Shown here piece after piece: positions 27,997 to 59,579 of a DNA stretch of 64,000 nucleotides (its first letter is position 1; each line of letters starts with the position of its first letter). The stretch is from contig NW_015622546.1 of assembly GCF_000835495.1 (NCBI RefSeq), positions 436,883 through 500,882 of the forward strand. The letters run 5' to 3'. Below the pieces are notes generated by a model. It worked only from the letters and a program-made list of their open reading frames with translations, did not search any database and was not told where the DNA came from. This DNA is from Cladophialophora immunda. Lineage: Eukaryota > Ascomycota > Eurotiomycetes > Chaetothyriales > Herpotrichiellaceae. The position numbers and the translations under genes are program-made.

Positions 27997-28003
27997 AAAA
28001 AAA
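27997..28003 (-). terminator. Pol III terminator (T7) of the tRNA-Phe gene
   Basis: Seven T on the minus strand begin three bases after the discriminator base. Confidence 0.8.
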
Positions 28004-28042
28004 TGATGCGGCCACTGTGGATCGAACACAGGACCTTCAGAT

Positions 28043-28061
28043 AAACTGAACCGAAGTTGTA
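28043..28061 (-). other. Canonical tRNA-Phe anticodon-loop intron (19 nt)
   Basis: Located between positions 37 and 38. It contains ACTTCGGTTCAGTT, which can pair with the anticodon region as in yeast pre-tRNA-Phe. Confidence 0.85.
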
Positions 28062-28069
28062 CTTCAGTC

Positions 28070-28119
28070 CTAGAAGCTGTTAGGTGGTGAATGACTGTGG
28101 TTGTAGATTTATTACGTAC
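28070..28119 (-). other. Spliceosomal-type intron B in the tRNA-Phe anticodon stem (50 nt)
   Basis: Starts GTACGT, has the branch motif CCTAAC about 10 nt from the end, and ends TTCTAG. It splits the anticodon stem, leaving a microexon of 8 nt (GACTGAAG) before the canonical tRNA intron. Confidence 0.75.
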
Positions 28120-28133
28120 TGACGCTCTCCCAG

Positions 28134-28187
28134 CTGCTGTTGCGTTAGAATTCGGTTTGCGGAAGAGGTACATCGGTTTTGTCTCAC
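28134..28187 (-). other. Spliceosomal-type intron A in the tRNA-Phe D loop (54 nt)
   Basis: Starts GTGAGA, contains the branch motif TTCTAAC about 15 nt from the end, and ends CAGCAG. Removing it restores a standard 8-nt D loop with the GG pair. Confidence 0.75.
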
Positions 28188-28202
28188 CTGAGCTATAGCC
28201 GC

Positions 28203-28701
28203 GATCCCATTTGTTGAAGGAAAATGCGAAGATCTTACTTATAAGCGCAACACTTTGTGGCTCTCCCCCACTGTATCTCACGTGACCGGGGCTTCCTACC
28301 TCGTGGGCAGTCGCTTCAAAGTGCCAGTCAAAGGATCCATCACGCTAGGCGAGTACTTGGTGGCGCTGATGGTGATCTCTGGTTTGCAGTCACCCACTGC
28401 AACACCCGTCGAGAGAGATGCGAAGGAACCCATCTTGCAGCTCAACTGATGCGAGGGGTGGAGAGTCATGGATGTAATCATTGAACTTCTCAATTGGTCG
28501 CGGTTTATTATGTGACACAAAATGCTTTACAGGCACGTGACTACGGCATATACTGCACTAATAGCGAAATGATCGACCGTACCACGCGTTCTCTTGAACT
28601 GCGCTACATGTCTATCTTGAACTCCGTCTCATGACTGCGCATCGATCAGTGCCTTCCTTCCGGGTCGGTAACAAATCCTCAATGTCGACACATTGCTAGA
28701 C
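28203..28701. other. Intergenic, no gene seen
   Basis: Upstream of the tRNA-Phe gene and downstream of the second phospholipase-like gene. I see no gene. Confidence 0.5.
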
Positions 28702-37665: not shown

Positions 37666-40600
37666 TCACTCGTCCGAAAATACCGCGGAGGAGCCATCGT
37701 CTTGGAAACCCCCATCTTTGTCCTCATCATCATCGTCGTCATCGTCTTCAAAAGTGTAGGTCGTCGGCTTCTTCGCAGTCACTGCTCGTCTTGCCGGTCT
37801 TGCTGCTGGTTTCCTTGCAACAGGCCCGTCTAGCTCAGAGCCTGAAGGTGACTTTAGGATATCATCTGCCAGAGCATCCATGTCATCATCTGAATCCACA
37901 ATCTTCTTTTTTGCAAGTCTTTTCGCGTATGCCTTCGCAGCGGGGGATTGTTCAACCTTCTTCGTCGCTAAAGCTTTCTTGGGGGCCGTTTTCTTTGGTT
38001 TTGCCTGCTCATCCTTCACTGCCTTTTTAGCAGGGCCCTTCTTATTTGCTTTTGGCGGTACAACATCGCTGTCACTGTCGTCGCTGACAATCTTCTTTAC
38101 CTTCTTGGGTGCAGGCTTCTTCCTGACCTTCACCGGAGCATTGTCTTCGTCGGAATCTCGGAGAACGTTGGTGTCATCCTTATTTGTCACAATGATGGAT
38201 CGTCTCGGAGACTGTTGCGGAGCAAGCATCTTGTAGTCGGTCTCGTCCTCGGATAGATCCATCGAGGCCTTTGCAGGCGGCTTCAGAGCCGGCTTATATC
38301 CATGGCTGCTGGTTGGTCGGGAAACAGAGTTGGAGAAAAGCGCACGCGATTCACCCCCGCTATCTGTGTTGAGATTGCTTGGTAGACCTTTCACCATGTC
38401 ACCAAGATCAGCGAGCAGATCGTCTCCATTGTCGCTTTCGGAGTCACTCAATAGCGCATAGTTTGTTGGCTTTTTGGTTACCGCACGAGCATGTCGGGGT
38501 GCAGCCTTGAGAATGCGGTTCTCGCCGTCAGACTCATCTTTCACACCGTTGACAAGGCGATCATTGCTGGGCTTCGCAAGGTCCTCCTCTGGTTCCTCAA
38601 TGGGGTCACTGGCACCATCAGTATACAGGCTTCGCTTCTCCAATGCATTCTTCAAAGCATTGGTCTTTGGGGCAGCATACGCTGTAATAGAGCGCTGTTT
38701 CGGAACCTGAACCGGTTTCGGAGCAGGCGCACTCTTCTTTGCTTTTGGAGCAGACTCCTGGAAATCAGAGTCATCGTCCCACGCATCACCAAGTCCCTTG
38801 CGCTTCTTGATGGTCGGCTTCGTCGTTGCTGCTGTAGCAAATTTCTTCGAGACGCGACGTCCCTTCCGGATATTGCGTTTGCGGTTGTGCTCGTCTTCCA
38901 GCTGAAACCTCCATTCGGCGATGAATTCATCAAGATCGTGTTTCCACAGATCTTCCTTGGATTTCTTCATCAAAGCATCGATCTCCTCCTCTTTGTCTCC
39001 GATCTGTCGCTGGAGTCGCTCAACTCGCTCCTGGGTTAAAGACCAAAGAGCCATGCCGAGAAGGTAGTCGTAGGCGCTGGCGTCAACAGACTCTTCCTCG
39101 TCCTCTTCGACAACTGGCTCGTTCTCACCTTCTTTGGCGGCGTCTTGAGTTTTGGGGAAAGCGTCAAATCCAAGCTTCTGGAGTTCTGCAATCAGAACAG
39201 CCTTTTTCTTCTTGGAGATATTAAGTTTTCCGTCAATGATCATCTGAATGAACCTGGCTTGGTTCGTCAGCCGTCTGAGATCTTTCTGCATCTCTTGCAA
39301 AAGCCATTCCTTGCGCTTAGCATACAACTGCAGACGATAGCTGTAGAATTCGTCCATGATCGCTTCGACGTTCGCATATTTGGTGATGCGGCCCTCTGGA
39401 TCAAACGCAACAAGATTTGATGTTGCCACTGACTTTGTGAGCTTGAATTTCTCCACAAGACCTTCTTCTACAGCAGACTTCATGTGCTTCTCGTCCAGCT
39501 GGATGATAAAATGCACTGAGTCGTGAGTATTATAATCCTTGTAGTCCTTGATAAACGATGGGGCTTTCTCTGCTTTGATGATCTCTTCTAGTCGATCCTT
39601 GAAATCCTGCGTCCAGGTACGGATGGGCAACTCTGTTATCTCAACTTCAGTGTCGCCGCTTTGGTGGATGATGCCACTGAATTGGAATCGGTCAGGTCCG
39701 GTAGCCTTGACTTCACCTTTGAATCCGCGGAACCAGGGCTGCATAGGCTTCCAGTCTTCGCCGGCCATTCTGCGTTTGAGGTTGTCCACGATGTCTTCTG
39801 GATTGTAGTTGGGGATAGAAGAACTCCAGCCCGTGCCAATACCGTCAGCACCATTGACGAGGACCATTGGGACGATCGGTACGTATACCTCGGGCTCGAT
39901 CTTCTTGTCATCATCATAGTTATAGGACAGAAGGGGTTCATCGGCTTGGTGAAACAGCTTCCTTGCGAAGGGCGATAGACGGGTGAAAATGTATCGAGCG
40001 CTTGCAGAATCGCTGCCGCCCTGGTTTCGGGTACCAAATTGGCCTGAGGGCTCCAACAAGTTGACATTGTTCGATCCGACAAAGCTTTGGGCCAGGCCGA
40101 CAATCGTCTGCTGGAGAGATGTTTCACCATGGTGATACGCGGTCATACCACCGACCAAACCCGCCAGCTCAGCAACCTTCATATCCTTTTTCAGATTGCG
40201 CTTGAAGCATGCATACATGACTTTTCGCTGACCAGGCTTTAGACCATCAACTACTGAGGGGATAGATCGGATGTTGTCGGCCATGCTGAACAGAATTAGC
40301 TCTTTGTTGACGAAATCGGTGTAGGAAATGTTTTTGGTCGTGTGGTCCAAAAATGTCCCTGGTTTGAATTGCCGCAACCACTCCTTTCGCTCGTCGGCCT
40401 TCTTCTTGGAAAAGGCAAGTTCGATCAAAGAGGCTTCATCGTCCTTCATGACGTCGAATTCTTTGTGGTGCTTGTCGATATCATTGAAGTATTGCTGTGC
40501 ATCTTCGGTCGTGCTTGTACCCAACCCCTTGTAGTATTTGTTCTCCCAACCACGTTCGTGCTTATGTGCTTCTTTCCAAGCCTCATACTCCGGCATGGTA

Positions 40601-42750
40601 TAAAAGGAGCGAGACTGGGTAGGATTCTTAGGATCGCCCTTCCATACTTTGACAATGGGAGTAATGAACTCGACCAAGAATTTCGGGATTTTAAGGAGAC
40701 TGGGAAACTGAACCTGCAGGAAGTTTATCAACAATCCCTTAATATGACTTCCATCATGATCTTGATCAGTCATGATCATCAAATGTCCATAGCGGAGGCC
40801 ATTTGTGTCAGAATACACCTTCTTGTGCTGAAGCCCAAGGAAGTTCTTGATGTTCTGGATCTCAGCGTTTTTGGAGATTTGATCAATAGAAGCATCTCTG
40901 ACGTTGAGGAGCTTACCCCGCAACGGAAACACGCCGAACAGGTCGGGACCGACGACGGAACGTCCTGCCATGGCAAGACCTTTCGCCGAGTCACCTTCGG
41001 TCAAAATCAAGGTACACTTATGCCCTTCTCTCGTGCCGGCCTTGTTTGCGTCCGTCAGTTTGGGGTTGTTCATTCGGCTCCGCCTGCTCCCATCAGATTT
41101 CTTTAGGATTTGATCGGCTTTCTGCTGGGCAAAGTGAAGAATGTTGTTGATAACTTCGGTTTTGGCAACCTTCTTCATGAATTCGTCTGACACCTGACAC
41201 TTACTTCCAAACTGACTAGCTTTTGTAGTCAATTGTTCTTTGGTCTGTGAAGTGAAGGCTGGGTTGACAATCAGGGCATTGACGAAGATGAAGATATGAT
41301 TGCGAATCTGGTTAGGCTTCAGTTGCGCACCGCCCTTGTTCTTTTTCTTGACGACTTCCATCAAGCGGTTGACGATCTGGTCGGCAATATAGTTGACATG
41401 TGTGCCTCCTGAGGTGGTGGCGATGGAGTTGACGAACGACACCTGTTGGAATGAGCCGTCAGACACGGCGAAGCCAATCTCCCACCGGGAGTCGGGAGAT
41501 TCTGTGATGATTTCAGACGTGTCATTTGCAGCCTCCTCACCACGCTCCTTCTTGATTGCTTTGGTATACATTTCAATGTACTTTTTGAAATTTCTGACGG
41601 GAACGGCGGAACCATTGAGTTTGACTTTGACCCCTTTACAGGTGCCGGCAAGATCGTAGACCCGGCGCTTGAAGAGTGCTTCGAGATCATCATCCATAGC
41701 CGTCATGCCAAACTTTGCGAAGTCAGGGTAAAATGTGACTTTAGTGTAGTCTTCCCCTTTGGAATCGGTGATCCTAGCCTTGCCCATCTCGGACATATTC
41801 TTGGTCCAGGTCTGCTTGTATTTCTTCTTTTGTTTCGAGTCGGCAGTCTCAATAGTGAATTCGGTGCTGAAGATGTTGGCCAGCTTCGCACCGTAGCCAT
41901 TCCTGCCACCTGTGATCTTCTGTTCGTTGTCGTCGTAATTCGAGCCGGTTAAGAGATGGCCGAAAATCATCTCTGGGATGTAGATCTTTTCTTTCGAGTG
42001 GATCTCGATAGGAATACCACGGCCATTGTTCCAGACGCTGACTTCGCCCTTTTCTCGGTCCACGGTAACACGGATCTCATCCATCTTCTTGTCATTTTGC
42101 TTATTATCTGCGGCATTGACCAAGATTTCATCGAAGATCTTGAATATACCGGGGACAAAAGATATTTCGCGGAATTCCATGCAATCTTGTTCCGTGTTGT
42201 AGACCCACATCTGCTTTTCTGTGCGCTCGACCGAGCCAATGTAGGTGTCGGGACGCTTGATGATATGTTCGAGCTGGGTAAGTTTCTGGTATTGCTCGGA
42301 GACGCGTTTCTTCTTCTTCTGGGGCTGTGGTGAATCGGTCGCGCCATCAAGGCCTATGGCTTCATTGACAACATCGCCGAGAGGTTTCTTATGACTCCCT
42401 TTGACAGGGTTCGGCTTCGCTTTCTTTGCCTGCGGAGGAGTGTCTTCAAGCAGCGACTCATCATCGAAGGGGTTGCCGGCTTCATCGTCTGAGGCTTCGT
42501 CTTCCGAGTCTTTCTTCGAGCGCTTCTTAGGAACGGTAGTCTTTGGCTTCGGGCCGGGTTTCGCTTTGGGAACCGTCGCCTTCTTCGTCGCAGCCTTAGA
42601 TTCGGAGGCTTTCTTGACGGGCTTGGTCTTTGGTTTCTGAGTAGACTTGTCAGAAAATGCGCTCCCATTGCTGGGAGATGCGCTGGGACTTACAGCAACA
42701 GGCTCAAAATCTGAGCTGCCGTCATCGATGTCGAACATGGAGTCGTCCAT
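37666..42750 (-). CDS. TOP2: DNA topoisomerase II
   Basis: One exon of 1694 residues from the ATG at 42750 (MDDSMFDIDDGSSDFEP); the frame extends a few codons upstream only with a GTG. An acidic and lysine-rich N-terminal extension of about 130 residues precedes the GHKL ATPase domain (LVNAADNKQNDKKMDEI, NNGRGIPIEIH, GGRNGYGAKLANIFS). The TOPRIM domain has EGDSAKGLAMAGR (Glu585 by count) and the DQDHDGSHIKG motif. The breakage-reunion domain has the active-site tyrosine in ARYIFTRL at about residue 920. A long charged C-terminal tail follows, as in eukaryotic type IIA enzymes. It is a nuclear, ATP-dependent enzyme that passes duplexes to decatenate chromosomes. The lack of introns is notable for a gene of this size here. 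Confidence 0.98.
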   Translation of the reverse strand: MDDSMFDIDDGSSDFEPVAVSPSASPSNGSAFSDKSTQKPKTKPVKKASESKAATKKATVPKAKPGPKPKTTVPKKRSKKDSEDEASDDEAGNPFDDESLLEDTPPQAKKAKPNPVKGSHKKPLGDVVNEAIGLDGATDSPQPQKKKKRVSEQYQKLTQLEHIIKRPDTYIGSVERTEKQMWVYNTEQDCMEFREISFVPGIFKIFDEILVNAADNKQNDKKMDEIRVTVDREKGEVSVWNNGRGIPIEIHSKEKIYIPEMIFGHLLTGSNYDDNEQKITGGRNGYGAKLANIFSTEFTIETADSKQKKKYKQTWTKNMSEMGKARITDSKGEDYTKVTFYPDFAKFGMTAMDDDLEALFKRRVYDLAGTCKGVKVKLNGSAVPVRNFKKYIEMYTKAIKKERGEEAANDTSEIITESPDSRWEIGFAVSDGSFQQVSFVNSIATTSGGTHVNYIADQIVNRLMEVVKKKNKGGAQLKPNQIRNHIFIFVNALIVNPAFTSQTKEQLTTKASQFGSKCQVSDEFMKKVAKTEVINNILHFAQQKADQILKKSDGSRRSRMNNPKLTDANKAGTREGHKCTLILTEGDSAKGLAMAGRSVVGPDLFGVFPLRGKLLNVRDASIDQISKNAEIQNIKNFLGLQHKKVYSDTNGLRYGHLMIMTDQDHDGSHIKGLLINFLQVQFPSLLKIPKFLVEFITPIVKVWKGDPKNPTQSRSFYTMPEYEAWKEAHKHERGWENKYYKGLGTSTTEDAQQYFNDIDKHHKEFDVMKDDEASLIELAFSKKKADERKEWLRQFKPGTFLDHTTKNISYTDFVNKELILFSMADNIRSIPSVVDGLKPGQRKVMYACFKRNLKKDMKVAELAGLVGGMTAYHHGETSLQQTIVGLAQSFVGSNNVNLLEPSGQFGTRNQGGSDSASARYIFTRLSPFARKLFHQADEPLLSYNYDDDKKIEPEVYVPIVPMVLVNGADGIGTGWSSSIPNYNPEDIVDNLKRRMAGEDWKPMQPWFRGFKGEVKATGPDRFQFSGIIHQSGDTEVEITELPIRTWTQDFKDRLEEIIKAEKAPSFIKDYKDYNTHDSVHFIIQLDEKHMKSAVEEGLVEKFKLTKSVATSNLVAFDPEGRITKYANVEAIMDEFYSYRLQLYAKRKEWLLQEMQKDLRRLTNQARFIQMIIDGKLNISKKKKAVLIAELQKLGFDAFPKTQDAAKEGENEPVVEEDEEESVDASAYDYLLGMALWSLTQERVERLQRQIGDKEEEIDALMKKSKEDLWKHDLDEFIAEWRFQLEDEHNRKRNIRKGRRVSKKFATAATTKPTIKKRKGLGDAWDDDSDFQESAPKAKKSAPAPKPVQVPKQRSITAYAAPKTNALKNALEKRSLYTDGASDPIEEPEEDLAKPSNDRLVNGVKDESDGENRILKAAPRHARAVTKKPTNYALLSDSESDNGDDLLADLGDMVKGLPSNLNTDSGGESRALFSNSVSRPTSSHGYKPALKPPAKASMDLSEDETDYKMLAPQQSPRRSIIVTNKDDTNVLRDSDEDNAPVKVRKKPAPKKVKKIVSDDSDSDVVPPKANKKGPAKKAVKDEQAKPKKTAPKKALATKKVEQSPAAKAYAKRLAKKKIVDSDDDMDALADDILKSPSGSELDGPVARKPAARPARRAVTAKKPTTYTFEDDDDDDDEDKDGGFQDDGSSAVFSDE

Positions 42751-44045
42751 CGCGGTGGTGTTCTCGGACACGAAGGCGAATCAGAAACGCCCAGTCGCTG
42801 GGTCAAGGAGGAAGAGATTGTCAATGCATGCGACACAGAGAGATATCACTTGCTTCCTTATCTGGACAGTCACAGACGATGAAGCAGAGCGTCTCCTGGT
42901 TCGCAGAGGGTTATTGTTGACCTTGTAAACATCAACTTTGAGGGCGAGTTTGGATGACCCACATCGCCAAGAGCTCGCGTCACGAACTAAACCTTTTTAG
43001 GAATTATCGAGCTTTCTTGGGGTGTTCACACAAAAGTACTTTATTCTACTTGCTCTTCACTGCCAGCTTGCTCATCTATTGTTTGGACGATACAAAGTCA
43101 TCGCAGCAGGTTGGCGCAGGAGAACGGCCACGATATATCCTATCAATTGGTGCCATGGAAGCGGATAATGGTTCCCAACATGGACGATAGATATCTGTAA
43201 TATCGACCAGCTGTGGAACGCCCCCTTAAACTAGTGCTCCATCCCGAGTTACTCGAAAGCCTGAACCGCGGGTCTGGGTGCTCCAATGGTGCCATGCCGC
43301 ACACTTCCCATTGCCTTGCCAGATACTCGTATGTCTACGTATGACTATTATCGATTGATAGTGCTTGTATCGTCTGGGAGAGCAACTCATCGCGTGACAT
43401 TCTCTCGTCGTTGCAGCACTTGCGACCTCAGAAGTGTCAGAATGCCCGGCCAACAACAACACTGACCTCCCCGCACCGCCATTGACGCGTTTCTCCTCCA
43501 TCAAGGCTGCCTCCTCAAACTCACCTCTCATGCAGGGCCTCAATAATGAGTCTGTGCCGTGTGCAGAAAGTTCACACAGAGTCATTATACATCATCTGGA
43601 GGCCCTACCTTCTCATGATTTAGTACTCAGGACCTGCAGAGAGCCGAAATTGCACGAACGGTGGGTGATCAAGCATTGGGTGTGGGCAATTTGGCAGGCT
43701 AGTGCCGACTCCATAGTTTCAAAGCCCCTTGGCCCACCACTGCTCAAACATGTCTACCCACCTGGGCACTCATATGGACTGTGCTCGTCTTCCTCCTCCC
43801 TTCATCGTCCTCGACGACAGCCATTCCTTTCTTCCCTGTTCCGCACTTCCCTCGCACGGTCGCTGGCAGACCCGGCGAGCAGTCTCTCTTTGTGATATCT
43901 GCCGGTCGTTGGAGCTACCCAAGTCTCAACCACCCCAAGGGCTCACTCTTTTGCCCTCGCTGTCCGACCTAGAACCTTCCCCGCCTCGTTCACCGCCCCT
44001 GGCATATCGAGAGTGCCTTGCCTAGAGTCTTCAGAACCAACCAGG
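42751..44045. promoter_or_regulatory. Divergent promoter region of TOP2 and the TBC gene
   Basis: About 1.3 kb between divergent starts. Short open frames are present but lack signatures. It is pyrimidine-rich just before 44046, likely the 5' leader. Confidence 0.55.
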
Positions 44046-54209: not shown

Positions 54210-55181
54210 GATGGGCACGCGGGAGGACTCGGTTGTGTCGTTCGGTTCGGTCGTGATATGCAATGACTGGGTATAGATTGGGGACGTCCAGACGCGTGGT
54301 GATGGCTGCAACGCAGTGTCTCTCAGTAGTTGGAGACCGCGGCTCGCGACGACTCCTCAGCACTGAGTAGCTTTACTGGCCTTGGCAGATGCGTGACTTT
54401 CCGTCAACGTCCCGTCTCCATGGACTTGGGATCCTCACACGCAGCTGGTTGCGCCTCTGGCTCAATCAAATTCTCACACGACTTCTTGCGGTGCTACACA
54501 TGTTCTCCATCGCATGCACATGCCACACCCTCCCAGAGTCCCGGGCTCGATCGATCCCAACAGCGGCCCCGCATCTTCCAGCTTCTCGAGGGCGCCATTC
54601 CTCGAACTGCCGGCGGCAGCGCGCAACCTGCATGCAGTGCAGTAGTCTTTGCATACGCAGCTGTCGAATCACCTCCCACAAGTCATATCAATTGAGGGTT
54701 GAAGACACTTCTCATTCGCAGCTTGCGGGCTTCCATTGGCAAAAACACTCCCATGCTGTTGGCCCACATGGGACAATCTTCGCCGTCATCCCTGCTTGAC
54801 TGCTAACGCGATTCAGTGATAACGTTCTCACACGAAGCGCCAGCGACGTGCCACGTATTTCAACTATCGAACCCTTTGGTCCGATCACCAAACCCTACAG
54901 GATATCTGAGCAGTAGTATCCAGAAACTATGCATCAACAGCCAACCGCATTCTACATCCCATCATGGGATCATCCTTGAAGGAGGTGCATGCATGGAGAG
55001 GTCTGTGGAGGGTGACGATAGGTGGGCAGGCTGGTCTCGCAGAATCCAACTCGGCTATGTCTGGATGACTTCAAGGTACATGCTTGCGTTCGTTCAGTGC
55101 CTATTCGTTCTTTCTCTCTTTGTGTAACCATCCCTCACCCAGTCTCTTCTGTTGTACACCATTGCTTCGTATACCAACAAA
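54210..55181. promoter_or_regulatory. Divergent promoter region of MED4 and P450
   Basis: About 970 bp between divergent starts. No gene seen. Confidence 0.5.
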
Positions 55182-56832
55182 ATGCTGTTGTCACCTTTCT
55201 TGTCAAAGGACAATGTTGTCTTCGGTTTTGAAATTCTCATTCCTAGCATCATTGTTTATGTCTTTGCCTGCGCCATCTACAATCGCTATTTTCACCCGCT
55301 GAAAGATATTCCTGGACCGTTTTGGGCTTCGATCACCAGTCTCTGGTACTTCAGAGCGGTGCGAAATGGTCGAGGTCAAGACTACCAACTCCCCATCCAC
55401 AAGAAATATGGCCCCATGGTCCGGCTTGCCCCCAATCAGGTTCAGATCGCGGACGCTTCCGCCATCGAAACCATATACGGTCCCAAATATGAGTTTACCA
55501 AGGGCGACTTTTACAACAATTTCCTGACACACATTTCCAAGCGTAAGGATAGCTTCGCCGAACGGGACGAAGCAGCTCACACGTGGCGACGACGGACAGT
55601 GGCGCACCTGTACACTCAAGCCGCTGTTCTGGAATACGAGCCCTGCGTCGACAGGGTCATCGCTCTCTTCCGCAAGCAGATGGATCATTTCGCCGACACG
55701 GGAGAGGTCTTTGATGTGTCTGTTTGGATCCGCAAGTACACTTTTGACATTATCGGGGAGATATTCTACGGGCGTGAAGGTGGCTTTGGCTTCATCAGAG
55801 ATAACAGTAAGTTATCAGTTCCGTTGAGAGGCAGCTTCATCGATGAACGGTGCCGATCATCAGAACATGATCACATCGGTACGGCGCTGACATATGCTTG
55901 CAGTCGATTACAACAATTGGTGCCATTTGATGGATGTCATGCCCAACCCTGCCGCGGCATTGAACAACCTGCCGTGGGGTTTCCGAAATCTATATTTTCT
56001 GTCCCAGATGATCTACCCGGCGACACGTGCTGGAGCCAAGGGGTTCTTTACCGTCATTGACCAATCCCACGCAGCCGTGAAGCAGCGGCTAGATGACATG
56101 GCGGCGGGGAGACCGTACAACAGGAACGACGTCCTCAGCAAACTCATCGACATCTCCAACGACCCGAAGAACGACTTCGGCATCCTCGACGTCACCACGG
56201 AGCTCTGGGCGATGATCTGGGCGGGCTCCGACACCACGTACATCGCTCTAACCTCGATCTTCTACTACCTGCACAAGAACCCGCCCACGCTAGCCAAACT
56301 GCGCGCCGAGATCGAAGAGGCCTTTACCAACGGCACCCTCAAGTACCCGATCCGCTACAACGACGCCATCAAGCTGCCTTACCTCCACGCGGTTGTCCGC
56401 GAGGCGATGCGCATGCACGGGTCGCTGGGCACGGGCCTGCCGCGGATCGTGCCGTACCCGGGCGTGGAGATCTGCGGGCGGTTTTTCCCTGGGGGCACGA
56501 CGGTGCTAATGAACGCCAACGCCGTGCACTTTGACACGGCCGTCTTCGGCGCCGACGCCGAACAGTTCATCCCGGAGCGCTGGTTCCGCGACGGCGAGAA
56601 GGCGGCCGCCAACATGGAGCGGCACATGATGCACTTCGGCTACGGCAAGCGCATCTGCATCGGCAAGCACATCACCACCACCGAGATGTACAAGCTGCTG
56701 CCCGCCGTCCTCCGGGACTATGAGTTCGACCTCCACATGGACGGCAAGGAGTGGACCGTCTGGCAGGGCTGGTTCCACCAGCAGAAGGACGTCACGGTCA
56801 CGGTCCGGAGGAGGCACACGGACCAGGTGTGA
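55182..56832 (+). CDS. Cytochrome P450 monooxygenase (pisatin-demethylase/benzoate-hydroxylase-like group)
   Basis: Exons 55182-55806 and 55904-56832 give 517 residues. The N-terminal membrane helix (IPSIIVYVFACAIYNRYFHP) is followed by DIPGPFWAS. Later motifs are WAGSDTT in the I helix, REAMR in the K helix, PERWFRDGEK, and the heme loop FGYGKRICIG with Cys460. It would be bound to the ER membrane. The second exon is clearly more GC-rich than the first, with many C-ending codons. It stands alone between MED4 and a C2H2-like gene and shows no cluster partners nearby. Confidence 0.88.
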
Positions 56833-57782
56833 GGTGAGCGCTTGATCTGGCTACAGGCCCAGGTGGACATTGGTTGATAAGGGTGGGTGATCTGAATTCA
56901 TGTTGAGAGACAAAAGCACCAAGTGAGTGTTCTACAGTGGAATGAGCTCGATCCTTCTTGCGCGGTGAACAACTCTTTGCTTCATCATCTGCTTTCTCCC
57001 CTCCGAGAGATCGACCACTCTGTGTCCTCTTGGGGTCCTACGTCTCTCACTCTCTTCCATCCGTCAAAGTTTCTGCCTATGCTTCAGGAAATCTCCAGAC
57101 CCGATTTTCTCAGCCTTGCCTTCTCAGCCTTGCCGAACTAAAATGGCGGTGAGGACGCCGTCCCCAGACACCCCAGCCTGACTATCCCCGGCCCTGGCCC
57201 AAGTCCAACAACCGCGTCCTGCCCTGCGATCTCTCCGGGACAAGCGAGAGAAAGATCTCGCCATCGAATATTCTCGTCAAGTGGCCCCGTTGCCGACCGT
57301 CTTCCGCCTTTGCTGTGCTTTGATCCATTGTCCGCATTGGCGCTTATGCATTCCACTTAGAACAACCTGACCAATGGGGCGCCTCTACGTTTCAAGACGC
57401 CTTTTTGTGGCTGTGTGGAAACTCCCATGGAAGGACTGAGTACACACATCTGTGACTTTCGGTCCTTGCTCTGTGACTGAGGCTTGCGCTCCTCCTGCTA
57501 TTTAGCCTCGCATTCCCTTCAGCCCACGTCTTCCCATGACAGTCTCTGCTCTCTTGTTTTACCTTGTCTTGAGAAATTCTTGTACCGTGCCTTCTCCAGC
57601 GACCTCTCGACCATTAGAATACCGCTGGATTTTCGGGTATTTCGTTCCGCTTGTGGTTTTTGAGGCTCGGAACATGACCCTTGGCGTTCTGCACAGAGCC
57701 TTGCGACCTTGTTCGCATTGTTCACAGCTGCAAGAGTATCAACCCACTCGGCTTCCGCCTCTCGATCTCGACGTGGTGGGAA
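56833..57782. promoter_or_regulatory. Upstream region of the C2H2-like gene
   Basis: No clear gene. A short open frame from the ATG at 57536 (MTVSALLFYLVL) may be an upstream ORF or an unplaced first exon. Confidence 0.45.
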
Positions 57783-59579
57783 ATGTATTCATATCGACCG
57801 GGAGATGCATGGTGGGTTCCCCGCACCAAGCCTCCGCTATATGTGGAGTCTCGCGCCAGTCGTCCGGCAGTCACGGAGCCTCGCTCCATTCCAGTTGAGC
57901 CAGTGACTTCTCGGGGGATTCCAGTACGTCAACGATCAGACAACTACAGTCTAGTCTCTGGCGAGCCTTTAAGCCGTTGGGGAAAACGTCGGCAGGGGAC
58001 ATCCTCCAACAACAGTATATCACCATTAGCGACTGCGAATGGGCTCCCTCGAGTTCGTAATGACAAATCCGCGAATGAAGACGACGTGTTTCCGAAGGGC
58101 GACCTGGACAGAGAAACCCTGGCTCAAGCTCCTTCTCGCGATTCCAAACCGATCGTTTCTTCACAGATTCACATATCCAACGGCGGATCTGGTCGAAAAA
58201 CAGCTATAGGTTCGAGTTCCACCCTTCTCGACCGAGACAATGGCCGCCGAGACGTTCAAGATGGGATGAGCTGCAACGTCGACGACGGCGATAAGCATCA
58301 AGGAGAAGCTGTACACCGCACCGACTGGGCTTTGGTTCGGTCCCTTCCCATCACGACCGGCCCGTCACAAACGAGAATGCCTCAGGTCACTGCATCATAT
58401 TCGTTGGACTCCGAACCGACCCACCGCGACTTTGGTGGCACTGCCAATCCTCCACTTGAATACCAAGATCTTGATGTTCTCATTGGTTCTGGTGAAGTGG
58501 AAGGAGCCTTGCGGAACCATAATACCGTCGATGGTGACGAGGCATCCTTTGCCGCCGCTTCGTCAATGTCTCAAGAAATGGACATGAGTTCTTCTGGAGA
58601 GGAATCCTTCGCCTTCAATTCTCAGTCTCCGCCATCTTTTGACATGGGACTAGAGAAAGAAATTGAGAACATGGTTTCGGAGATCGCGCTAGATTTGGTG
58701 CAAGGGTTCTTGTCCGGCAGTGGAAGAATAAACGTATGCACCCCTCAAAGTTCTCAAGGATCGCCTGCAAGCTCAAACGTTGGCGATCGGCCTGCCACTG
58801 GATCTTGTTCATCAACCGGACAGGCGAGCAAAGCGGCAGGATCGTCCAATAAGGACAAACGCCATGAACATGACGGCAACGAGGAGCCGAAGGAACCACA
58901 GAGACCACGCATCCAAAGCCTCATCCAGGATGATTCTGACGAAGAAGGGCTTCTTGCCTGCCCTTATGCGAAATACGATGCCGACAGATATTCAGAAATG
59001 AACCCGAATCTGCATGAAAGAGCGTATCGTCGATGCCGAAGTGTATACTTGACAAACATTCCCCGGCTGAAGCAGCATCTTTATAGGATCCATAGGCGAC
59101 CTGAATATTACTGTTCGTCCTGCTATACCGAATTCAAGTCGGAAAGCGACTGCGAGGGGCACGCTCGGGCGAGGCCAGCCTGCGCTGTGAATGACTGCCC
59201 CTTTCAGGAGAAGATGACCCACGAACAGTACAAAGCAGTCAAGCGCAGGAAGATGCGCAGAGACGCCGCGTCAGTATGGTTCGAAATCTTCGACATCCTT
59301 TTCCCGGGTGCGCAGCGTCCAGGCACTCCCTATGTGGATGACACACATTCCCAGGCCACAATGCAGAGTGTCCAGGATTACACCAGGTATCTCGAAAACC
59401 ATCTGCCCCAAATGCTCTCTGAACGAATGGGTCGCCCTCTTTTTAATAACGATTCCTCGATGTTTCAATGGCTCCTAAATAAAGCTCTTGAGGAGACCTT
59501 GCCGAGGGCTCTGCGAGAGTTGCAAGATTCATGGCAAATGGTGGGATCTGTGGCGGGAATCAACGATGATTCAACTTGA
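57783..59579 (+). CDS. C2H2-like zinc-finger protein of a fungal-specific type
   Basis: Intronless reading of 598 residues from the ATG at 57783 (MYSYRPGDAWWVPRTKPPLY); the frame opens a little earlier, so an upstream exon is possible. The first two thirds are disordered. The C-terminal third has atypical fingers: ACPYAKYDADRYSE, CRSVYLTNIPRLKQHLYRIH (C with two His), and YYCSSCYTEFKSESDCEGH with a trailing Cys. This ACPYxK plus HLYRxHxxPxYC pattern is common in filamentous fungi in proteins of unknown role. DNA or RNA binding is inferred only from the fingers. Confidence 0.75.
   Translation: MYSYRPGDAWWVPRTKPPLYVESRASRPAVTEPRSIPVEPVTSRGIPVRQRSDNYSLVSGEPLSRWGKRRQGTSSNNSISPLATANGLPRVRNDKSANEDDVFPKGDLDRETLAQAPSRDSKPIVSSQIHISNGGSGRKTAIGSSSTLLDRDNGRRDVQDGMSCNVDDGDKHQGEAVHRTDWALVRSLPITTGPSQTRMPQVTASYSLDSEPTHRDFGGTANPPLEYQDLDVLIGSGEVEGALRNHNTVDGDEASFAAASSMSQEMDMSSSGEESFAFNSQSPPSFDMGLEKEIENMVSEIALDLVQGFLSGSGRINVCTPQSSQGSPASSNVGDRPATGSCSSTGQASKAAGSSNKDKRHEHDGNEEPKEPQRPRIQSLIQDDSDEEGLLACPYAKYDADRYSEMNPNLHERAYRRCRSVYLTNIPRLKQHLYRIHRRPEYYCSSCYTEFKSESDCEGHARARPACAVNDCPFQEKMTHEQYKAVKRRKMRRDAASVWFEIFDILFPGAQRPGTPYVDDTHSQATMQSVQDYTRYLENHLPQMLSERMGRPLFNNDSSMFQWLLNKALEETLPRALRELQDSWQMVGSVAGINDDST

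What the first reader, a model, noticed from the sequence alone, without database searches (positions are those of the whole stretch)
28007..28202. tRNA-Phe gene interrupted by two spliceosomal-type introns in addition to its normal tRNA intron
Seen in sequence: four exons of 15, 14, 8 and 36 nt join to exactly 73 nt that fold as a perfect tRNA-Phe(GAA). Two of the removed segments (28134-28187 and 28070-28119) begin GTGAGA and GTACGT, end CAG and TAG, and carry CTAAC branch motifs, the same signals as protein-gene introns here. The third is the standard 19-nt tRNA intron. Established: nuclear tRNA introns are normally removed by tRNA endonuclease at position 37/38, not by the spliceosome. Inference: a Pol III transcript is processed by both machineries, or the gene is transcribed in an unusual way.
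Basis: partly seen in the sequence, partly recalled or inferred. Interest (0 to 1): 0.95.

Follow-up and report, generated by a model that had tools for sequence, protein, structure and literature searches.

The report
Spliceosome-type introns throughout fungal tRNA genes
In this black-yeast fungus the only intact tRNA-Phe gene found is cut by two introns of the kind that interrupts messenger-RNA genes, and about four in ten of the tRNA genes found in its genome are cut in the same way, so making these tRNAs probably depends on the mRNA splicing machinery.

Summary
Minus strand 28202→28007 spells a 73-nt tRNA-Phe(GAA) in four exons; two inserts (54, 50 nt) are GT…CTAAC…AG, the third is the ordinary 19-nt intron at 37/38. 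No other intact tRNA-Phe was found in the 42.2-Mb genome; one degenerate tRNA-like sequence with that anticodon exists.

I resolved 45 tRNA genes there; 19 hold 25 such inserts. With cut points left free, GT..AG is among the best-fitting cuts for 21 of 25 (next pair 6). All 25 GT-AG introns have a branch motif 14–19 nt before the 3' end; 0 of 38 ordinary tRNA introns are GT…AG or hold CTAAC. Two tRNA-Asp genes have identical mature sequences, one with, one without the intron. In this census Phe, Asn, Gln, Glu and Pro have only interrupted genes; Tyr, His, Lys and Trp were not found.

Best reading: Pol III precursors lose these introns through the spliceosome and the 37/38 intron through tRNA endonuclease. 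No RNA data were available. Closest precedents: spliceosomal introns in fungal U6 and U3. I found no report for tRNAs.

The parts
28007..28202 (-). tRNA-Phe(GAA) gene, 196 nt, the only intact tRNA-Phe found in the genome
28188..28202 (-). exon 1 (15 nt): acceptor 5' strand, D stem 5' strand, start of D loop
28134..28187 (-). spliceosomal-type intron 1 (54 nt, GTGAGA...CAG) between tRNA positions 15 and 16 (D loop, inside the A box)
28144..28148 (-). CTAAC branch motif of intron 1, 15 nt from its 3' end
28120..28133 (-). exon 2 (14 nt): rest of D arm and start of anticodon stem
28070..28119 (-). spliceosomal-type intron 2 (50 nt, GTACGT...TAG) between positions 29 and 30 (anticodon stem)
28079..28083 (-). 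CTAAC branch motif of intron 2, 14 nt from its 3' end
28062..28069 (-). exon 3 (8 nt): end of anticodon stem, anticodon GAA and position 37
28043..28061 (-). ordinary 19-nt tRNA intron at 37/38 (no GT-AG, no CTAAC)
28007..28042 (-). exon 4 (36 nt): anticodon stem 3' strand, variable loop, T arm (B box whole), acceptor 3' strand
27997..28003 (-). run of seven T starting 3 nt after the tRNA end: Pol III terminator-like
28239..28243 (-). TATAA at -41, possible upstream promoter element (weak: TATA[AT] lies at -60..-15 in 8 of 19 interrupted and 8 of 26 uninterrupted genes)

Best explanation
The locus is the working tRNA-Phe(GAA) gene of a chaetothyrialean ascomycete. It is transcribed by RNA polymerase III into a precursor with three introns. 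The spliceosome removes the two GT-AG introns (branch motif CTAAC), and tRNA splicing endonuclease plus ligase remove the 19-nt intron at 37/38. Spliceosomal removal probably comes first, since the endonuclease reads the folded tRNA body (recalled). The gene is one of at least 19 of 45 resolved tRNA genes in this genome with such introns. Shown: exon/intron anatomy, splice signals, no other intact tRNA-Phe found, recurrence across the genome. Inferred: transcription by Pol III, use of the spliceosome, order of steps.
For: Exons give a complete tRNA scoring 30.6, against 18.5 for the best other start/end pair in the window. With cut points left free, GT..AG is among the top-scoring cuts for 21 of 25 inserts (12 of 13 in single-insert genes); the next dinucleotide pair reaches 6 of 25 and the mean over 256 pairs is 0.69. 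A branch motif [CT]T[AG]A[CT] lies 14-19 nt from the 3' end in 25 of 25 GT-AG introns (18 exact CTAAC), against 0.065 per intron after shuffling. Of 38 ordinary introns at 37/38, 0 begin GT and end AG, 0 hold CTAAC, and 0 of the 14 of 25 nt or more have the motif in register. One protein-gene intron of the window, placed by homology to a Cladophialophora P450, reads GTAAGT...CTGAC...CAG. ARAGORN of 19 spliced forms a tRNA, and 7 of 19 unspliced ones, 3 of these with my isotype. Two tRNA-Asp genes agree at 72 of 72 mature positions, one with and one without a 53-nt GT-AG intron. No other intact tRNA-Phe found; Phe, Asn, Gln, Glu and Pro have only interrupted genes among the 45. T5+ runs lie within 19 nt in 45 of 45 genes. 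U6 and U3 genes of fungi are often interrupted by introns (PMC5832005, passages); that the U6 intron of fission yeast is spliced by the spliceosome is recalled.
Against: No RNA evidence: no read across any junction was seen. In 4 of 25 cases a cut other than GT-AG fits slightly better (Asn second intron, both Ser-GCT introns, Ala; by 0.12 to 2.2 points), and the Ala solution leaves a T-T mismatch in the acceptor stem. In Val-AAC two and in Ser-GCT four GT-AG solutions tie; I took the one with the better 5' signal in Val and the first listed in Ser. Three of the 26 genes counted as uninterrupted also allow a GT-AG piece to be cut inside their long 37/38 intron at no cost. The 25-of-25 figure holds by construction and is not used. 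Genes were partly picked by eye with GT-AG in mind, and the branch motif was worded after seeing the sequences. ARAGORN's anticodon differs from mine in 5 of 19 spliced genes (Leu-CAG, Pro-CGG, Ile-AAT, Arg-TCT, Gln-CTG). T runs are not purged from these introns more than from coding-like introns (T5 in 0 of 25 against 1 of 34). Introns split the A box in 7 genes or the B box in 5, so how Pol III is recruited is unclear. The intronless tRNA-Asp twin shows that one interrupted gene may be dispensable.
Confidence: 0.88

Rival explanations
1. The introns are spliceosomal, but the precursors are made by RNA polymerase II (or run through from a neighbouring Pol II unit), spliced as mRNAs are, and then trimmed into tRNAs.
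For: Introns split the A box or the B box in 12 of 19 genes (positions worked out). Spliceosomal splicing is usually coupled to Pol II (recalled). T runs are no rarer than in coding-like introns.
Against: T5+ runs within 19 nt of the 3' end in 45 of 45 genes, interrupted or not, are what Pol III needs. The Phe gene overlaps no open frame of 150 or more codons. Fungal U6, a Pol III transcript, carries such introns in other species (for the introns).
Confidence: 0.12
2. The inserts are endonuclease-type (bulge-helix-bulge) introns at unusual positions, as in archaea, nucleomorphs and Cyanidioschyzon.
For: Such introns are known at similar positions (3/4, 29/30, 45/46, 53/54 in archaea; PMC4090602, passages).
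Against: The central 4-bp helix of the motif is complete in 4 of 25 introns, about as often as with mismatched ends (0.16 against 0.12). GT..AG in 21 of 25 free-cut tests and the branch motif in 25 of 25 have no place in that mechanism.
Confidence: 0.03
3. Dead or decaying gene copies with chance insertions.
For: One interrupted tRNA-Asp has an intact twin. A degenerate tRNA-like sequence with anticodon GAA exists (L027), so tRNA decay does occur or can be mimicked.
Against: Stems of the Phe gene are fully paired and no other intact tRNA-Phe was found. Five amino acids would have no tRNA gene in this census. The splice signals recur in 19 genes.
Confidence: 0.02
4. The inserts are recent copies of one mobile intron family (introners) spread through tRNA genes.
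For: Five of 25 sit in the D loop at or next to 15/16, four of them as AG|GT with AG ending the exon (Phe, Leu-TAG, Ile, Glu-CTC).
Against: Among themselves the 25 introns align over 13 nt at most at E below 1 (best E 0.04). The Phe locus has no second match in the genome.
Confidence: 0.05

Closest known systems
Spliceosomal introns of fungal U6 snRNA and U3 snoRNA genes (PMC5832005, passages)
   Same: GT-AG introns with a branch motif inside short structured non-coding RNAs of fungi; U6 is a Pol III transcript.
   Different: Here the hosts are tRNA genes, many at once, at about nineteen positions, nearly always beside a second intron of another kind (18 of the 19 genes). U6 of this genome matches the whole U6 model without interruption.
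Canonical eukaryotic tRNA introns at 37/38 (Sen endonuclease and Trl1 ligase pathway)
   Same: Present in the same genes: 38 of 45, 8-57 nt.
   Different: The 25 extra introns lie elsewhere and carry GT-AG and branch motifs; of the canonical ones 0 of 38 are GT...AG or hold CTAAC. The tRNAscan-SE 2.0 authors write that eukaryotic tRNA genes are limited to one intron (PMC8450103, passage).
Non-canonical tRNA introns of archaea, nucleomorphs and Cyanidioschyzon (PMC4090602, passages)
   Same: Introns spread over the tRNA body, sometimes several in one gene.
   Different: Archaeal ones are cut at bulge-helix-bulge motifs, and those of the Guillardia nucleomorph are 3-24 nt long. Here 49-69 nt, with spliceosomal signals and no excess of that motif.
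tRNA sets reported for black yeasts (PMC8709033, PMC4463862, PMC5595782; passages)
   Same: Small sets: 64, 38 and 73 in three Exophiala species, 52 (28 spliced) in Cladophialophora immunda, against 80,824 predictions in 432 fungal genomes. In E. dermatitidis all but tRNA-Trp were found.
   Different: None of the passages I read mentions a spliceosomal intron in a tRNA gene. Genes hidden by such introns could explain missing isotypes (inference).

Membership tests
Spliceosomal (U2-type) intron | GT at the 5' end and AG at the 3' end | tested here: met
   both Phe introns, and 21 of 25 overall, have GT..AG among the best free cuts; 5' consensus GTRNGT, position 5 is G in 24 of 25
Spliceosomal (U2-type) intron | branch motif at a fixed distance from the 3' splice site | tested here: met
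   25 of 25 at 14-19 nt, 18 exact CTAAC; shuffled expectation 0.065 each
Spliceosomal (U2-type) intron | same signals and length as protein-gene introns of the genome | tested here: inconclusive
   one P450 intron placed by homology has the same signals but is 97 nt long; 34 coding-like introns were picked by these very signals and an open frame, so they are not independent
Spliceosomal (U2-type) intron | removal as a lariat by the spliceosome | not testable with these tools
   no RNA data
Functional nuclear tRNA-Phe gene | complete cloverleaf with anticodon GAA and invariant bases | tested here: met
   score 30.6, equal to the best uninterrupted tRNAs; ARAGORN calls tRNA-Phe; RNAfold's energy minimum of the bare sequence is another fold
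Functional nuclear tRNA-Phe gene | only or main gene for its anticodon | tested here: met
   no second intact copy in three searches of the held assembly; one degenerate look-alike, L027
Pol III transcription unit | T run just after the gene | tested here: met
   T7 3 nt after the end; 45 of 45 genes have T5+ within 19 nt
Pol III transcription unit | uninterrupted internal A and B boxes | tested here: not met
   A box of tRNA-Phe is split by intron 1; B box whole
Bulge-helix-bulge tRNA intron | 4-bp helix between the two cut sites | tested here: not met
   complete in 4 of 25 introns, about as in the control; ends only, no full structure search
Canonical tRNA intron | position 37/38 | tested here: not met
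   introns 1 and 2 lie at 15/16 and 29/30; the third (19 nt) is canonical

The most novel reading that the evidence does not exclude
Spliceosomal introns have invaded the whole tRNA gene set of this fungal lineage. At least 19 of 45 genes carry 25 such introns at about nineteen different places in the tRNA, and the supply of at least five amino acids (Phe, Asn, Gln, Glu, Pro), perhaps nine with the unfound Tyr, His, Lys and Trp, runs wholly through the spliceosome acting on Pol III transcripts that are also cut by tRNA endonuclease.
Probability: 0.8. Interest if true: 0.97.

Novelty: new variant of a known kind. Interest (0 to 1): 0.93.

Why it matters
Textbook tRNA splicing uses one intron, one place and a protein endonuclease. 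Here the spliceosome appears to be needed to make tRNAs themselves, so translation would depend on mRNA splicing factors. It raises direct questions: how Pol III transcripts enter the spliceosome, how a tRNA gene works with a split A or B box, in which order two machineries act on one precursor, and how introns enter non-coding genes at many sites. It would also mean that standard tRNA finders miss a large share of tRNA genes in such genomes, which may explain the small and incomplete tRNA sets reported for black yeasts (inference).

Tried and rejected
Dead copy with chance ends: rejected. Bulge-helix-bulge introns: no clear excess of the motif. Mobile intron family: no similarity among introns. 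Purging of T runs inside introns as a Pol III sign: not found. Link between TATA-like boxes upstream and interruption: 8 of 19 against 8 of 26, nothing firm. Host as a basidiomycete: my first guess, dropped after the protein search. First version of the free-cut test: its 25 of 25 for GT-AG holds by construction, so I replaced it. Tyr, His, Lys and Trp genes: D-arm and split A-box patterns recovered none of them (only 16 of the 50 places were fetched). One search's pattern instead led to Val-CAC and the two Gln genes (read). Two T-arm candidates with 5 of 5 stem pairs stayed unresolved: L072, a simple repeat, and L146. Searches list 96 and 72 rows; by hand count these are about 124 distinct T-arm places besides genes already known, of which 9 were never fetched. 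Rfam hit L027 was set aside as degenerate.

Full report
WHAT IS THERE. The minus strand from 28202 to 28007 reads as four exons of 15, 14, 8 and 36 nt with inserts of 54, 50 and 19 nt. Joined, the exons give a 73-nt tRNA with anticodon GAA, all stems paired (one G-U in the acceptor) and the invariant bases in place; ARAGORN calls it tRNA-Phe(gaa) with a 19-nt intron. RNAfold's minimum-energy fold of the bare 73-mer is a rod, not the cloverleaf, which I recall as common for unmodified tRNA sequences. On the raw window ARAGORN reports no tRNA and Rfam no match. The first two inserts begin GTGAGA and GTACGT, end CAG and TAG, and hold CTAAC 15 and 14 nt from their ends. Seven T follow 3 nt after the tRNA end.

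CHANCE. I scored tRNA fit by stems and invariant bases, with no splice signal except the GT and AG required of removed pieces. The Phe locus scores 30.6, as the best uninterrupted tRNAs do. Over both strands of the whole window, 563 start/end pairs with a T arm and a matching acceptor were tried the same way: the best not ending at this tRNA reached 18.5. In 6000 random 196-nt segments the best was 10.2, but only 2 passed the first filter, so that control is weak.

WHOSE GENOME. The window's open frame 57678-59579 has its best named relatives in Fonsecaea monophora and Cladophialophora psammophila (54 and 58% identity), and the P450 frame 55891-56829 is 96% identical to a C. psammophila protein. 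The host is thus a black yeast of the Chaetothyriales, close to C. psammophila. The genome held is 42.2 Mb in 39 contigs.

IS THERE ANOTHER tRNA-Phe? The 29-nt 3' end has one match in the genome at up to 3 mismatches, this locus. The joined 73-mer matches only this locus's exon 4. Rfam's tRNA model gives 26 hits (only 63 of 935 first-look candidates were scored). One of them, L027, reads GAA as anticodon: 22.5 bits against a cut-off of 29, 6 of 7 acceptor and 4 of 5 T-stem pairs, a score of 14.2 in my fit, no GG in the D loop, no T5 run within 40 nt, not called by ARAGORN. I take it for a relic or a chance match; it cannot be excluded that it is something else. An uninterrupted D arm like that of the Phe exons would be within 2 mismatches of the pattern; its three hits do not read as tRNAs (by eye).

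GENOME-WIDE. The Rfam hits already included genes with GT...AG inserts in the variable or T loop (L020, L023, L025, L026). A scan for T arms followed by five T, 80 and 20 regions fetched from it, and D-arm patterns led to 45 tRNA genes that I could resolve: 25 from Rfam, 16 from T arms, 3 from a D-arm pattern and the Phe gene. Of these 26 are without and 19 with spliceosomal-type inserts. The 19 are Phe-GAA, Val-AAC, Asp-GTC, Asn-GTT, Leu-CAG, Pro-CGG, Leu-TAG, Ile-AAT, Ser-GCT, Glu-CTC, Pro-AGG, Ala-AGC, Leu-TAA, Arg-TCT, Glu-TTC, Pro-TGG, a second Asp-GTC type, Gln-TTG and Gln-CTG. Six have two inserts, giving 25 introns of 49-69 nt, mean 55. In Val-AAC two and in Ser-GCT four GT-AG solutions tie; I took the one with GTGAGT in Val and the first listed in Ser. 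Three genes counted as uninterrupted (Ser-TGA, Arg-CCT, Leu-CAA) also allow a GT-AG piece to be cut inside their long 37/38 intron at no cost. ARAGORN finds a tRNA in 19 of 19 spliced forms, and in 7 of 19 unspliced ones, 3 of them with my isotype. For Leu-CAG, Pro-CGG, Ile-AAT, Arg-TCT and Gln-CTG it names another anticodon than I do in the spliced form.

ARE THEY SPLICEOSOMAL? For each of the 25 I let the cut points go anywhere (30-110 nt) and kept the cuts with the top tRNA score. GT..AG is among them in 21 of 25, and in 12 of 13 for genes with a single insert. The runner-up pair reaches 6 of 25 and the mean over 256 pairs is 0.69. The four exceptions are the second Asn intron, both Ser-GCT introns and the Ala intron, where another cut scores 0.12 to 2.2 higher. 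For two-intron genes the other intron was held at its GT-AG place, so the test there is not fully free. An earlier version kept all cuts scoring at least as well as the GT-AG one and so gave 25 of 25 by construction; I do not use it. Apart from that score, a branch motif [CT]T[AG]A[CT], worded after seeing the sequences, lies 14-19 nt from the 3' end in 25 of 25 GT-AG introns, exact CTAAC in 18; shuffling predicts 0.065 per intron. The ordinary introns at 37/38 serve as internal control: 38 of 45 genes have one, 0 of 38 begin GT and end AG, 0 hold CTAAC, and 0 of the 14 that are 25 nt or longer have the motif in register. One protein-gene intron of the window, placed by homology (55807-55903, 97 nt), reads GTAAGT...CTGAC...CAG.

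PARALOGS. Two tRNA-Asp genes (L045, L118) have 72 of 72 identical mature positions; one carries a 53-nt GT-AG intron between positions 24 and 25, the other does not. Two tRNA-Ile(AAT) genes (68 of 74 alike) differ in the same way at the D loop. Insert and exon can thus be told apart without any tRNA model.

WHERE THEY SIT. Positions, worked out: 3/4, 7/8, 8/9, 9/10, the D loop at or next to 15/16 five times, 23/24, 24/25 twice, 26/27, 29/30 twice, 32/33, 42/43, 43/44, the variable arm twice, 52/53, 53/54, 55/56, 57/58 and 60/61. By my count 7 genes have an intron inside the A box (8-19) and 5 inside the B box (52-62). The introns are not related to each other in sequence. Many separate insertions, or an old invasion with much decay, would fit.

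MECHANISM. Shown: anatomy, signals, recurrence, no other intact tRNA-Phe found. Supported: transcription by Pol III, from T5+ runs within 19 nt of the end in 45 of 45 genes. For part of the genes the T run was a condition of the search, but not for those found by Rfam or by D arm. Not supported: purging of T runs from the introns (0 of 25 with T5 against 1 of 34 coding-like introns). Inferred: the spliceosome removes introns 1 and 2, and tRNA endonuclease and ligase then remove the 19-nt intron. How Pol III is recruited when the A or B box is split is open; TATA-like motifs upstream (8 of 19 against 8 of 26) are only a hint.

DEPENDENCE. In the 45 genes, Phe, Asn, Gln, Glu and Pro are served only by interrupted genes. 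Tyr, His, Lys and Trp were not found by the Rfam, T-arm or D-arm searches; since the fungus must have them, they are probably interrupted too, which is inference. Limits: 9 of about 124 T-arm places were not fetched, the Rfam search missed 5 of the 26 uninterrupted genes, and the assembly may be incomplete.

LITERATURE. Seen as passages: PMC5832005 states that U3 and U6 are so far the only small structured RNAs known to be often interrupted by an intron, and judges the U3 introns normal spliceosomal introns. PMC8450103 states that eukaryotic tRNA genes are limited to one intron. PMC4090602, a review of tRNA introns, has 0 occurrences of the word stem 'spliceosom' in the held text and describes non-canonical introns in archaea, nucleomorphs and a red alga. 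For black yeasts: PMC4463862 reports all tRNAs but Trp in Exophiala dermatitidis, PMC8709033 lists 64, 38 and 73 tRNAs in three Exophiala species, and PMC5595782 52 tRNAs (28 spliced) in C. immunda; the passages of PMC5844311 speak of mitochondrial tRNAs. Passages of PMC11782384, PMC13149111 and PMC4424553 brought no case of a spliceosomal intron in a tRNA gene. Six exact phrases for spliceosomal introns in tRNA gave 0 papers. The wider searches listed none by title or start of abstract; one search listed only 20 of 216 papers and only 10 of 19. The library lacks most subscription journals and holds no bioRxiv preprints, so an earlier report cannot be excluded.

VERDICT. I rate it a new variant of a known kind: spliceosomal introns in a structured RNA gene are known from U6 and U3, but not in tRNA genes as far as these searches show, nor on this scale.

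Noticed in passing
G000:C5 (L118) and G000:C1 (L045): Two tRNA-Asp genes with 72 of 72 identical mature positions, one with and one without a spliceosomal-type intron: a natural test pair for intron gain or loss.
   Followed up: yes
L027 1501-1576 (G000:C2:3286361-3286436): A degenerate tRNA-like sequence with anticodon GAA, below Rfam's cut-off, without T5 run: relic of a tRNA-Phe or chance match.
   Followed up: partly
L026 from 1501: A second, quite different tRNA-Asp(GTC) type whose B box is split by a 61-nt GT-AG intron and which lacks a 37/38 intron.
   Followed up: partly
L082 and L102: tRNA-Ala(CGC) and tRNA-Ala(AGC) genes have bodies that resemble tRNA-Pro of the same genome (GGTCTAGNGGTATGA) but carry the G3-U70 pair; they may derive from tRNA-Pro by anticodon change (comparison by eye).
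   Followed up: no
G000:C3:4237790-4237954 (L168, L089): The single U6 snRNA hit matches the whole U6 model without interruption, and a B-box-like GTTCGATTCC followed by T5 lies about 35 nt downstream of it.
   Followed up: partly
L109 (Leu-TAA) and L019 (Ser-TGA): The ordinary 37/38 introns of these two genes contain runs of six and five T, which might act as Pol III terminators inside the gene.
   Followed up: no
L001, L037, L060, L102, L131, upstream of the tRNA: A shared CTTCAACAA or TTTCAACAA motif starting about 17-25 nt upstream of these five interrupted tRNA genes (by eye), perhaps the transcription start.
   Followed up: no
window 37666-42780, minus strand: A 1704-codon open frame whose residues 160-1291 match yeast DNA topoisomerase 2.
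   Followed up: no
window 55128-56829, plus strand: Cytochrome P450 gene, 96% identical to a Cladophialophora psammophila protein over the second exon, with an intron at 55807-55903.
   Followed up: partly
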